DNA from: Bacteroidota bacterium
GTDB taxonomy: Bacteria; Bacteroidota; Bacteroidia; Bacteroidales; NBLH01
Length of the DNA: 64,000 bases
Reading direction: 5' to 3'
Assembly: GCA_025361565.1 (NCBI GenBank)
Contig: JANYKN010000034.1
Location: forward strand, 1-64,000
Shown piece by piece: positions 28,568-32,688 of the stretch. The notes beneath the pieces are model-generated. The model saw nothing but the letters and a program-made list of their open reading frames with translations, ran no database searches and was not told the DNA's origin. The position numbers and the translations under genes are program-made. How positions within the stretch are numbered: the stretch's first letter is position 1; every line of letters begins with the position of its first letter.

Positions 28568-28580
28568 GGATAAGCTAACA

Positions 28581-28606
28581 CTGTCAGGTTTTTCAAACTC
28601 TGACAG
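28581..28606. repeat. Left palindrome CTGTCAGGTTTTTCAAACTCTGACAG
   Basis: CTGTCAG-GTTT/AAAC-CTGACAG hairpin with a one-base bulge; same stem as 30421-30446. Confidence 0.85.
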
Positions 28607-28674
28607 ATTCCAGATAAAACATTCTTTAAAGTATAAGAGAACCTACAAACAGAAGATTCTTACCTTTGAGCAAA

Positions 28675-28842
28675 AGAGGATAAAGCAGCATATCAGTGCG
28701 ACCAATGGTGCATTGCTGCCCGTCTGACAGACTTGATCCAAAAGGTTTGATTTAAGTATTGATGAAAGCAAGTACCTTAATTCTTGCTATGCTCGTTTGG
28801 CAGGATAATATTAGCCATAATACCTTTTGTGCCTTATCCTCT
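28675..28842 (+). ncRNA. Candidate IS110 bridge RNA
   Basis: Closing stem AGAGGATAA (28675-28683)/TTATCCTCT (28834-28842), extended by GCA/TGC; internal stem-loops GCAGCA/TGCTGC (28685/28714), AGCAAG/CTTGCT (28767/28783), TGGC/GCCA (28798/28814); directly upstream of the transposase. Confidence 0.6.
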
Positions 28843-28868
28843 CATTCTAAAACAAAATTCATCTTCTT

Positions 28869-29504
28869 ATGACAAATGTAAAGAAAAAGAAAATTGCATC
28901 AAAAAAAGCAGTGCTTGAGCGCATTAAATTTAATGCAGCAGGGATTGATTTGAGTTCCCAAGACATGTATGTTGCAGTGATTGACAAGCCCGTAGTCAAA
29001 TTTTCCACCTTCACTTTTGGTATTAAAGAGTGTGTAAAATACCTGCAAACAGAAAACATCGGGTCTATTGCCATTGAAGCAACAGGGATTTATTGGTTCC
29101 CAATTTATGAAGCCCTCGAAGAAGTCGGATTTGAGATTTATATTGTAAATGGCCGGCATGCAAAAAATGTCCCAGGCCGGAAAACAGATGTCCTTGATTC
29201 TGAATGGCTGCGTGAATTGCACACTTACGGACTTTTGAGGGCATCCTTTATCCCAAAGGAAGAAATCAGAAAGTTGAGATATTATATGCGGCTGCGAAAA
29301 GACCACATAGCATCCAAAGCCGCATGTGTCAACCATGTGCAAAAAAAATTTAGATGCAATGAACATAAAACTCCACACAGTCATCAGCGACATCATGGGC
29401 GAAAGTGGGCAAAAGGTGGTAAGGGCAATTGCCAATGGCGAAACCTCGGCAGAAAAGCTTACCGGGCTGTGCAATGCCGATATGCAAAAACGAAAGGGCC
29501 CTGA
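28869..29504 (+). pseudogene. IS110 transposase, N-terminal DEDD part (frame-disrupted)
   Basis: GIDLSSQDMYVAVID...AIEATGIYWFPIYEAL...VNGRHAKNVPGRKTDVLDSEWLRELH; frame lost at A8 run 29341-29348. Confidence 0.88.
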
Positions 29505-30219
29505 AATATTAAAAGCCCTTGAAGGAAAGTTCAGAGAAGAGTATTTATTTGCACTTAACCAGGCATTGGACATTTATGATTTTTTCTTTGAAAAGATTAG
29601 GGCTTGCGATAATCAAATCGAAAACTTGCTGTTTACAATGACAAAGCAGAAAGAGGAACCTCATGATTTAAGTGCATCTAAAAGCATAAACCACAATATG
29701 CCTCAAATAAAGGATTTTCATTACCTGATGGTTAAATTGTCAGGAAATAAAGATGCTACATCAATTGCAGGCATAAATGATTATTCGTTTCTCCAGATTA
29801 TCTCTGAAACAGGATTGGATTTACAGGAAAAATGGTTAACCAACAGCCATTTTACTTCGTGGTTAGGTTTAGCGCCCCCTTTAAATAAATCAGGAAAAGG
29901 ACCAAGGCAAAAAAAGAAATTCAAGAGGCAAGTAAACAATGCAGGTGAGATTTTCAAACAAATAGCACAAAATGTTGGAAATGGAAAACATTGTGCTTTG
30001 TCGGGTTTTTACAAAAGGATAAAAGGACGCAGTGGTGCATCAATAGCAAATAAAGCAACAGCAAGAAAAATAGCAGTTTACTATTACGACTTAATGACTA
30101 AAGGTTTAAATTTTGTTGAAGAAGGTATTAAAAGGTATGAAGAACGTTACAAAGCCCAAAAGCTTAAATATTTGTTCAAACAAGCTCAAGAATTTGGATT
30201 TGAATTAGTTTGTGCCTGA
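29326..30219 (+). pseudogene. IS110 transposase, C-terminal (Transposase_20) part
   Basis: KKNLDAMNIKLHTVISDIMGESG...SIAGINDYSFLQIISETG...FTSWLGLAPPLNKSGKG, continuous with ORF1 in the +1 frame. Confidence 0.88.
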
Positions 30220-30333
30220 ATTTATCAATTAAACATAACCAAACCAATTCACAATTAGGGTTAGTGAATGGTTTGATATTGCAATCTTACGAATGAAGAT
30301 TGTTGATATGATATGTCCTGACTCAAAACTTAA

Positions 30334-30372
30334 ATTTTGATATAGTCTTAATACTTAAGACTATATCAAAAT
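30334..30372. repeat. Perfect 18-bp inverted repeat with 3-nt loop at the IS110 right side
   Basis: ATTTTGATATAGTCTTAA / TAC / TTAAGACTATATCAAAAT. Confidence 0.9.
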
Positions 30373-30420
30373 ACTTCTTTCAGACTGGATGGTTCTTTGG
30401 CAGGTTGGAGGATAGGTAAC

Positions 30421-30446
30421 CTGTCAGTGTGCATTGCACCTGACAG
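30421..30446. repeat. Right palindrome CTGTCAGTGTGCATTGCACCTGACAG
   Basis: CTGTCAG/CTGACAG and GTGC/GCAC stems with one T bulge; same outer stem and length as 28581-28606. Confidence 0.85.
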
Positions 30447-30567
30447 TGTTAAAAATATTCGATTATAATTTAACTTTAAAATCAACTATCTATACTAAAA
30501 TAATGTAAACTAAGTTTTAATTAAAGACAAACATCCCAGAATTAAAATTGGTAAAGCAAACTAATAG

Positions 30568-32688
30568 TTGAAAATAATGGCTAATTTACTTTTCGTCACA
30601 ATCGTTTTTGGCCTTACCCTAAACATCAATGCCCAACAAAAAATTGTTGTTAAAAATGTTGGTCATCAAAGTGTTGTAAAAAGCCTTGCCTTTAGTCCGG
30701 ATGGAAAATACCTTGCTGTTGGTGGCGATGACAATACAATTAAAGTTTGGGATTTACAAAATGGAAAACCCCTTACTGCTTTAAAACACAATGGTGCTAT
30801 TAATAGTGTTGCTTTTAGTTATGATGGAAAATATCTGGCATCGGGCAGCAATGATTCAACTATCAAAATATGGAATGCGCAAAATTGGATAGAAATACGT
30901 ACTCTGCCCAAAGAAAAATCTGCCATAAAAACAATTTCTTTCAATCCTGACGGAAAAATCCTTGCTTCAGGTGGTTATCAATCTATCAAACTATGGAATG
31001 TAAAAACCTGGAAAGAAATCCATTGCATTGCAGCACACACTTCTTATATATCAAGCATATCCTTTAGTTCCGATGGGAAGTACCTTGTTTCGGGAAGCGA
31101 AGATTGCAAAGTCAAGCTTTGGGATGTAAAAACCAAAGAAGAAGTGCGCAACATGGATGCAAATTCACAGTGGGTAAATTGTGTATCCTTTAGCCCTGAT
31201 TGCAAATATGTAGCTTTCGCCAGCTCAGATAAAACTATCGGATTGTGGAATTTCGAAAGCAAAAAGAAAAGTATTACAATTCTAAAACAAAATGGTATTG
31301 TTAAAAGCATAGCTTTCAGTCCCAATAGTAAATATTTGGCTTGCGGAGGTCTGGATAAAAAAATTAAACTTTGGGATATACAAGCCGGATATAGTTTACA
31401 TACTTTGGTGCAAAAGGTTGTTGTAAATAGTATTTCTTTTAGCCCTGATGGAAAATATATTGCCTCTGGCAACGACGATGGCTCAGTTGTTATTTGGGAA
31501 ACATCAACTGGCAATCAATTGATTACAATGATAGGAATGTTGTCAGATCAAAAGGATTGGATTGTATTTACTCCTTCCGGAAAGTATGACGGCATTAATT
31601 ATAACAAATATTTGAAAGGTGCTTCGGGTGCTCAGTTGAATGAACTTCCGACAAATGATGGCAATTATTTGTCGGGCATCCTTGCAGAAGTTTTTGGGCA
31701 TAAACAAGTGCAGCCTGATAGAACCCCGCCAACCATTACCATAAATTCTGAATTAAACTTTGAAGTTTCGCAAAATGAATATACGATTAGCGGCAAATCG
31801 ACAGACGAAAGCGGAGTATTATTGGTTTTGGTTAACAGATTAAAAGCGGATAATGATAGTGGAAGTTTTAGTTGTCAGGTTAATTTAAATGAAGGGCTTA
31901 ATACAATTCAAATCTATGCATACGATAAGTTTGGTAATATGAACAATAAAACCGTAACAATTACCTTTAAACCTTCTCTGCGAAAAGATTATGCGTTGAT
32001 ATTTTATGAAAGTGATTATACAACCAGTAACTTGCCAAACCTGAGAGGTACAAAAAAGAATGCAGATACTCTTTCAAGCATTTTGCAAAATAAATATGGA
32101 TTTGAAACACATGTTTTTCCAAATTATACAGCATTACAAATAGAAAAAACTTTGAGTAGATACAGCAAAAAGAGTTATTCACCCAATGACCAATTGTTGA
32201 TTTATTTTACAGGACACGGCCAAAAGGGAAATGCCGATACAACCGGTTATTTGTTGTGTGCCAATAACACTAAAATGACTCATAAAGAGTTTAATACATG
32301 GTCAGGAATAGATTCGTGTCAGCATATATTAATGGTTCTGGATGCTTGTTACAGTGGCTTGGGATTAAGTATAAATATGATTGGAGATACGCCGCCGCAA
32401 TATAATCCAAGAACAAAGGATGAATATCTGAAGGAATTATTCAAATTTAAGCCTGCACGAAAGGCTTTAACTTCGGGTGAAGGAAAAGTTTCCATACCAC
32501 TCGATGGTATTTCGGAATTTACTGAAGCTTTTATCCTTGCACTGAAAAAGAATGAAGGTAAATTATTTAATATACTTACTTATAACGAATTGAAAGCTAA
32601 ATTAGGGAATGATTATTTAAAATTAGAATCAGGGAAATTTTATAATGACGACGAATCGGATGGGACTTTTATTTTTATGAAAAAATGA
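30568..32688 (+). CDS. Exported seven-WD40-repeat protein fused to a caspase-like (peptidase C14) domain
   Basis: Signal peptide (LLFVTIVFGLTLNINAQ); seven FSPDGKYLASG...IKLWD repeats; C-terminal KDYALIFYES...LLIYFTGHGQKG (His) and ILMVLDACYSG (Cys) motifs. Confidence 0.93.
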   Translation: MKIMANLLFVTIVFGLTLNINAQQKIVVKNVGHQSVVKSLAFSPDGKYLAVGGDDNTIKVWDLQNGKPLTALKHNGAINSVAFSYDGKYLASGSNDSTIKIWNAQNWIEIRTLPKEKSAIKTISFNPDGKILASGGYQSIKLWNVKTWKEIHCIAAHTSYISSISFSSDGKYLVSGSEDCKVKLWDVKTKEEVRNMDANSQWVNCVSFSPDCKYVAFASSDKTIGLWNFESKKKSITILKQNGIVKSIAFSPNSKYLACGGLDKKIKLWDIQAGYSLHTLVQKVVVNSISFSPDGKYIASGNDDGSVVIWETSTGNQLITMIGMLSDQKDWIVFTPSGKYDGINYNKYLKGASGAQLNELPTNDGNYLSGILAEVFGHKQVQPDRTPPTITINSELNFEVSQNEYTISGKSTDESGVLLVLVNRLKADNDSGSFSCQVNLNEGLNTIQIYAYDKFGNMNNKTVTITFKPSLRKDYALIFYESDYTTSNLPNLRGTKKNADTLSSILQNKYGFETHVFPNYTALQIEKTLSRYSKKSYSPNDQLLIYFTGHGQKGNADTTGYLLCANNTKMTHKEFNTWSGIDSCQHILMVLDACYSGLGLSINMIGDTPPQYNPRTKDEYLKELFKFKPARKALTSGEGKVSIPLDGISEFTEAFILALKKNEGKLFNILTYNELKAKLGNDYLKLESGKFYNDDESDGTFIFMKK

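What the first reader, a model, noticed from the sequence alone, without database searches (positions are those of the whole stretch)
28577..30450. IS110 flanked by two copies of a CTGTCAG palindrome, and the putative bridge RNA carries the same motif in a loop
The element sits between two 26-nt palindromes (28581-28606 and 30421-30446) sharing CTGTCAG...CTGACAG arms; their outer arms AACACTGTCAGG/CCTGACAGTGTT are reverse complements. The 9-mer TCTGACAGA occurs in the left palindrome (28599-28607) and in the segment of the candidate bridge RNA between its first two stem-loops (28723-28731), where a target-binding loop would be expected. A second 9-mer, TTTGGCAGG, is shared between the RNA (28796-28804) and the right non-coding end (30396-30404), as a donor guide might be. 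Together these suggest an RNA-programmed IS110 that targets a REP-like palindrome. The individual 9-mer matches could be chance.
Basis: partly seen in the sequence, partly recalled or inferred. Interest (0 to 1): 0.7.

Follow-up and report, generated by a model that had tools for sequence, protein, structure and literature searches.

The report
RNA-guided IS110 inserted in a REP
A jumping gene in a Bacteroidota genome carries its own guide RNA, whose loop spells out the repeated palindrome it landed in; relatives with changed loops sit in correspondingly changed sites, and the clade mixes features thought to separate two known groups of such elements.

Summary
The element is an IS110-family insertion sequence of about 1.8 kb (28607-30403) that inserted after the AG of CTGACAG in the right arm of the LEFT palindrome. 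Joining the flanks (28606 to 30404) restores CTGACAGGTT, the arm consensus of a REP family found elsewhere in this genome and in same-genus and same-order genomes. The right palindrome is the second REP of an inverted doublet, not an IS end. The upstream non-coding RNA carries a left target guide (TCTGACAG) and a left donor guide (TTTGGCAG). In 20 elements, 14 have a perfect 7-nt match between guide and own left flank, against 1.1% for guides of other elements (p<5e-5). The nearest relative sits in GTTGACAG with guide TTTGACAG. So this is a bridge-RNA IS110 aimed at a REP, a principle known from IS621. The newer part is the clade: the RNA lies upstream (IS110-like), but the right target guide lies 5' of the left one (order reported for IS1111; replicated in an independent set, p=0.0004), and a covarying 6-12 bp subterminal inverted repeat sits 31-36 nt from the left and 4-7 nt from the right end in most relatives. 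The window's transposase is frameshifted in an A8 run.

The parts
28577..28606 (+). Left REP copy (AACACTGTCAGG...CTCTGACAG): the target. Left target CTGAC 28600-28604 plus core AG 28605-28606
   Evidence: REP consensus; guide match
28607..30403 (+). IS110-family element (about 1797 bp incl. one AG core copy)
   Evidence: Junctions from guide matches and, independently, from subterminal inverted repeat positions; rejoined flanks restore REP consensus (sequence, pattern)
28638..28643 (+). Left arm of subterminal inverted repeat AGAACC, 31 nt from the left end
   Evidence: covarying in most relatives
28665..28852 (+). Candidate bridge RNA (outer helix 28665-28683/28834-28852)
   Evidence: fold z -2.1; 87% identity over 92 nt with L057; covarying helices
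28697..28705 (+). Probable right target guide (CGACC 28699-28703 pairs with GGTTG = core G + right flank GTTG, one G.U)
   Evidence: class-wide tests; match of this single copy is short (5 bp)
28706..28721 (+). Hairpin between right and left target guides (GGTGCATTGCTGCC)
   Evidence: alignments
28723..28730 (+). Left target guide TCTGACAG (core AG 28729-28730)
   Evidence: perfect match to own left flank; covaries in relatives
28739..28829 (+). Donor-binding domain closed by covarying helix CAAAAGGT 28739-28746 / ACCTTTTG 28822-28829
   Evidence: z 8.0 over 20 elements
28796..28803 (+). Left donor guide TTTGGCAG
   Evidence: matches right end; covaries
28869..29504 (+). Transposase N-terminal ORF (DEDD/RuvC domain), frame lost in an A8 run near 29340-29350
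   Evidence: PF01548; NF033542; comparison with L057
29326..30219 (+). Transposase C-terminal ORF (Transposase_20, catalytic SG motif)
   Evidence: PF02371; NF033542
30334..30372 (.). Perfect 18-bp inverted repeat in the unusually long right end
30391..30396 (+). Right arm of subterminal inverted repeat GGTTCT, 7 nt from the right end
30396..30403 (+). Left donor TTTGGC plus core AG (right terminus of the element)
30404..30413 (+). Right target (GTTGGAGGAT): rest of the left REP arm (GTT) and doublet spacer
   Evidence: rejoined site CTGACAG|GTT = REP arm consensus
30417..30450 (-). Second REP copy of an inverted doublet; genomic, outside the IS
   Evidence: 95% identical 41-nt copy at C76; doublet of same layout at C18

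Best explanation
An IS110-family element transposed, as an RNA-guided recombinase complex, into the right arm of a REP. Its left-end RNA pairs with both strands of the target around an AG core: the left target guide TCTGACAG with the bottom strand of CTGACAG, and a right target guide 5' of it with the top strand right of the core. A second loop (left donor guide TTTGGCAG) recognises the joined ends of the circular element. Recombination at AG leaves ...CTGACAG|ATTCC... on the left and ...TTTGGCAG|GTTGG... on the right. Shown by comparison: boundaries, core, left target and left donor guides, class-wide right target guide. Inferred: that the RNA is made and bound, the circular intermediate, and catalysis. 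This copy's transposase frame is broken, so it may now be immobile.
For: Guide/left-flank: 14 of 20 elements have a perfect 7-mer match in a 120-nt window vs 1.1% with foreign guides, permutation p<5e-5. Nearest relative L057 shows a paired change: flank GTTGACAG / guide TTTGACAG vs CTCTGACAG / TCTGACAG here. Guide/right-end matches beat all permutations. Copies of one element in a complete genome (L059 family, G395) whose left flanks could be read all lie after TCATCCTGAG, with guide CCCTGAG. A tandem copy (L110) shows the donor junction TTAAGAG|TATACAG read by its guide TTTAAGAG. Subterminal inverted repeat at fixed distances from both inferred ends, z 6.1. Covarying helix z 8.0; ncRNA more conserved than the gene. 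DEDD and SG domains. Rejoined flanks give the REP arm consensus; the REP pattern occurs 3 times in this genome and 14 times in G006, 0 in the reversed-pattern control.
Against: No true empty site was found: no close orthologue of the neighbouring gene in the genus. Only one copy in its own genome. L057 begins at a contig end inside its REP, and its right flank GAAATT is not REP-like beyond AGG; its genome holds no strict copy of this REP. No transcript or recombination data. Transposase ORF is frameshifted.
Confidence: 0.93

Rival explanations
1. Target choice is by protein recognition of REP hairpins, and the 9-mers in the RNA are remnants or chance.
For: The target is a palindrome, and several relatives also sit in palindromic repeats such as GTCATTCCGAG...CGAAGCGAGGAATC.
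Against: Other relatives sit in non-palindromic sites (e.g. the ILKK codons of IS3-type genes, L117, L156, L158) with matching guides; the guides covary with flanks base by base.
Confidence: 0.04
2. The whole block is a REP-bounded composite: both palindromes are ends of the mobile element (inverted repeats) and move with it.
For: Outer arms of the two palindromes are exact reverse complements.
Against: The same REPs occur alone and as doublets without any IS; relatives lack these palindromes as ends; subterminal repeats and guides fix the ends at 28607 and 30403.
Confidence: 0.02
3. The mechanism is as in the best explanation, but the right target guide is 3' of the left target guide as in IS621, and the apparent 5' guide is a statistical accident.
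For: Position differs between elements by 0-2 nt; for the window copy alone the match is only 5 bp with a wobble.
Against: Two independent element sets single out the same place (18 elements: z 4.0, 0 of 5000; 9 elements: z 3.5, p 0.0004), and no window 3' of the left guide is significant in the second set.
Confidence: 0.07

Closest known systems
IS621 (IS110 group; bridge RNA; PMC11208160, PMC11208158)
   Same: RNA from the left end with target and donor guides, dinucleotide core, DEDD plus SG recombinase, natural targets are REP elements
   Different: IS621: 328-aa chain in the PDB entry, CT core, order LTG (nt 50-58) then RTG (77-80), only a 2-3 bp terminal repeat reported for the group. 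Here: about 450-aa enzyme, AG core, order RTG then LTG, 6-12 bp subterminal repeat
IS1111-family elements with seekRNA (ISEc11, ISPa11, ISKpn4; PMC11187229)
   Same: Top-strand guide 5' of bottom-strand guide; subterminal inverted repeat
   Different: IS1111: RNA downstream of the gene, 330-350 aa enzyme, repeat usually 11-13 bp with 7- and 3-bp extensions. Here: RNA upstream, repeat mostly 6-9 bp, extensions 31-36 and 4-7 nt
ISEc21 (IS110 family; PMC11187229)
   Same: Upstream RNA; several relatives here also target IS3-family genes
   Different: ISEc21 has the bottom-strand guide 5' of the top-strand guide; its target is the DDE region of IS3 transposases, not the ILKK codons
REP-targeting IS elements ISPpu9, ISPpu10, ISPa11, ISRm19/22 (PMC1525189)
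   Same: Specific insertion into REPs
   Different: Proteobacterial REPs; unrelated REP sequence

Membership tests
IS110 family (broad) | DEDD (RuvC-like) transposase N-terminal domain | tested here: met
   PF01548 E 9e-17, NF033542
IS110 family (broad) | Transposase_20 C-terminal domain with G..P....SG motif | tested here: met
   PF02371 above cut-off; GLAPPLNKSG
IS110 family (broad) | No target duplication beyond a short core, no terminal IR | tested here: met
   AG core shared by both junctions; no terminal repeat
IS110 bridge-RNA element | Non-coding RNA with guides matching target and donor that covary with them | tested here: met
IS110 bridge-RNA element | RNA transcribed and bound by the recombinase | not testable with these tools
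   needs RNA-seq / pull-down
IS110 group (vs IS1111) | RNA-coding region upstream of the gene | tested here: met
   all 20 Bacteroidota elements and the plasmid relatives read
IS110 group (vs IS1111) | Bottom-strand (left) guide 5' of top-strand (right) guide | tested here: not met
   right guide lies 5' of left guide
IS110 group (vs IS1111) | No or very short subterminal repeat | tested here: not met
   6-12 bp covarying repeat, z 6.1; the window copy itself has 6 bp
IS1111 group | Subterminal inverted repeat of 7-17 (usually 11-13) bp with 7/3-bp extensions | tested here: inconclusive
   repeat present but shorter, with 31-36 / 4-7 nt extensions
IS1111 group | RNA-coding region downstream of the gene; 330-350 aa enzyme | tested here: not met
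   RNA upstream; about 440-480 aa
IS1111 group | Transposase branches with IS1111 transposases | not tested
   no named IS1111 reference sequence could be fetched; tree shows the clade apart from 322-334 aa plasmid IS110s
REP element | Short dispersed palindrome, often in inverted pairs, in several genomes | tested here: met
   low copy number in this genome

The most novel reading that the evidence does not exclude
The widespread long-transposase (about 450 aa) clade to which this element belongs is a distinct architecture of RNA-guided transposon, between IS110 and IS1111: left-end bridge RNA, two tandem modules of the form right guide - hairpin - left guide, AG or AA cores, and a covarying subterminal inverted repeat with a long left extension. 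It would show that guide order and RNA location evolved separately.
Probability: 0.7. Interest if true: 0.6.

Novelty: new variant of a known kind. Interest (0 to 1): 0.5.

Why it matters
REP targeting by an IS110 bridge RNA is known for IS621; this extends it to Bacteroidota, with a different REP family, and shows natural reprogramming between relatives base by base. The mixture of IS110-like RNA location with IS1111-like guide order and subterminal repeats bears on how the two groups diverged (the published idea is that the RNA moved from one end to the other) and points to a separate family of enzymes for programmable DNA recombination, whose right-target pairing in several members looks longer (5-10 bp) than the 4 bp of IS621.

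Tried and rejected
The C-terminal half found no relatives in genome contigs; the N-terminal half gave L057. Empty-site orthologue in the genus: best hits to the neighbouring RND gene only about 28-31% identical, so none. RAYT-type transposases exist in the genome (10 Y1_Tnp hits) but the four examined loci have no copy of this REP beside them. Right donor guide: scans gave no consistent place, left open. Rfam: no relevant match. The whole block as a composite element: rejected. Programmed frameshift in the A8 run: not favoured, since L057 has A7 and reads through in frame; transcriptional slippage or an assembly error cannot be excluded. The permutation value of the pre-donor hairpin is not used because the two search windows overlap. 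The 'joined' line printed was wrong (left part dropped, one base off); the empty site is read directly. Right guide in L116, L033, L090 does not fit its present right flank.

Full report
Observation. The stated palindromes, arms and 9-mers are all present at the stated places. Between them lies an IS110-family transposase gene, split into two overlapping ORFs (28869-29504 and 29326-30219). The N-terminal part matches DEDD_Tnp_IS110 and the C-terminal part Transposase_20; both match NCBIfam 'IS110 family RNA-guided transposase'. The split is one extra A in an A-run (A8 here, A7 in L057, which reads through), so this copy is either decayed or misassembled.

The palindromes are REPs. A 41-nt stretch over the right palindrome recurs at 95% identity at contig C76 and at 86-92% in other genomes of the genus and order. 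The consensus is AACACTGTCAGG-loop-C[AGT]CTGACAGGTT. A strict pattern finds 3 copies in this genome and 14 in a same-genus genome, with none for the reversed-pattern control. Inverted doublets occur without any IS: C18 has two REPs in opposite orientation with a 19-nt spacer, the layout inferred here for the empty site.

Boundaries. Both junctions share AG. Joining 28606 to 30404 gives ...AACACTGTCAGGTTTTTCAAACTCTGACAG|GTTGGAGGATAGGTAACCTGTCAGTG..., in which the left REP arm becomes CTGACAGGTT, the consensus (one search read). The occupied arm is CTGACAGATT. The element is therefore 28607-30403 and the right REP is a neighbour. No allelic empty site is available.

Relatives and guides. The own genome has one copy and a few distant IS110 fragments. 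Searches in the order, phylum and class and in genome contigs gave several dozen relatives. The nearest, L057 (67-69% identity in the N-terminal half, 60% in the C-terminal half), keeps 87% identity over 92 nt of the non-coding region, more than in the gene. L057 starts with ...GTTGACAG|ACC and its RNA has TTTGACAG; the window has CTCTGACAG|ATT and TCTGACAG: the same change on both sides. Aligning the left ends of 20 elements gives a guide block after CC[CT]G and a donor block after CCCG. With guides taken from the RNA columns, 14 of 20 elements have a perfect 7-mer match in their own left flank, against 1.1% for guides of other elements; no permutation of 20,000 reached the observed sum. The donor guide/right-end sum also exceeds every permutation. 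The L059 element has four copies in one complete genome; the copies whose left flanks could be read all follow TCATCCTGAG. A tandem pair (L110) displays the RE-LE junction, TTAAGAG|TATACAG, matched by its donor guide.

RNA architecture. A helix after the target guide pairs with a segment after the donor guide and covaries strongly (CAAAAGGT/ACCTTTTG here, TCCGGAAGACTG/TGGTCTTTCGGG in L032, GTTTCAGAGCAT/ATGTTCTGATGC in L028; z 8.0). An outer helix also covaries. The RNA reads as two similar modules, each 'segment - TRGTG hairpin CCYG - left guide'. Scanning about 40 windows for complementarity to each element's own right flank singles out one place, just 5' of the first hairpin (z 4.0, 0 of 5000 permutations). 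A second set of nine elements from Pseudomonadota and Cyanobacteriota, fetched afterwards, gave the same place and none 3' of the left guide (z 3.5, p 0.0004). Examples are CCCCUCU with AGAGGGG (L160), AGCGCGCU with AGCGTGTT (L152), UUCGCC with GGCGAA (L155) and CAGUGGUC with GGCTACTG (L117). The order is thus right target guide, hairpin, left target guide. IS621 has LTG at 50-58 and RTG at 77-80 (PMC11208158). ISEc21, with an upstream RNA, also has the opposite order, and IS1111 members have the order found here (PMC11187229). The window's own right-guide match is only 5 bp (CGACC with GGTTG), so for this copy it rests on the class-wide result. The right donor guide was not located.

Subterminal repeat. 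Comparing the two ends reveals an inverted repeat at a fixed offset: 31-36 nt from the left end and 4-7 nt from the right end in most elements, mostly 6-10 bp, with covarying sequence (AATGAACAT/ATGTTCATT, AATGACAA/TTGTCATT, GATGAACCA/TGGTTCATC; AGAACC/GGTTCT here); the sum over own pairs exceeds all permutations (z 6.1). The second set shows the same at 31-35 and 4-6 nt, up to 12 bp. L033 and L064 gave their best match at another distance. IS1111 repeats are reported as 11-13 bp with 7- and 3-bp extensions, and IS110-group repeats as absent, short or 2-3 bp (PMC11187229, PMC11208160).

What it is. The window holds a bridge-RNA IS110 element that chose a REP through its RNA. That principle is known (IS621 and REPs; PMC11208160, PMC1525189), so the window element alone is a new member. 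The clade, transposases of about 440-480 aa that branch apart from 322-334 aa plasmid IS110s, combines an upstream RNA with IS1111-like guide order and an intermediate subterminal repeat. I found no description of this in the papers I could read; figures and supplements were not available, and the six extra elements drawn in PMC11208160 Fig. 6 could include such a case. No IS1111 reference could be placed in the tree.

Steps shown by comparison: boundaries, core, left target and left donor guides, helix, right target guide position for the clade. Inferred: expression, binding, circular intermediate, catalysis, and whether this copy can still move.

Noticed in passing
L117 (Aeromonas), L118 (Bradyrhizobium), L156 (Acuticoccus), L158 (Lichenicola), L116 (Citrobacter): Relatives of the same clade sit after GACATTCTAAAAAA or a close variant, in most cases the A-rich ILKK codons of IS3-type transposase genes, with matching guides of the type TCAAAAAA: an IS110 lineage that inserts in other insertion sequences.
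   Followed up: partly
window 30334-30372: Perfect 18-bp inverted repeat (loop 3) in the right end; the right ends of the window element, L057 and L062 are about 180-220 nt long while most relatives end within about 50 nt of the stop codon.
   Followed up: no
L110 (G950:C17), L115 (G395), L067 (G695:C20): Copies of these elements about 1.6 kb apart in tandem; L110 is a head-to-tail pair joined by an exact RE-LE junction, L115 repeats a flank of about 40 nt between copies.
   Followed up: partly
L031-L034, L058, L059: A group of relatives inserts in another dispersed repeat, GTCATTCCGAG/CGAAGCGAGGAATC or GTCATCCTGAG/C..GTCGAAGGATC.
   Followed up: partly
L029, L060, L063: The transposase stop codon overlaps the right end of the element, so the donor site is also coding.
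   Followed up: no
G000:C36 and C189, first 670 bases: Two contigs of the window's genome begin inside near-identical IS110 genes of a different type: repeats that probably broke the assembly.
   Followed up: no
window 30568-32688: Gene downstream encodes WD40-type repeats followed by a caspase-like domain (read by eye from the translation).
   Followed up: no
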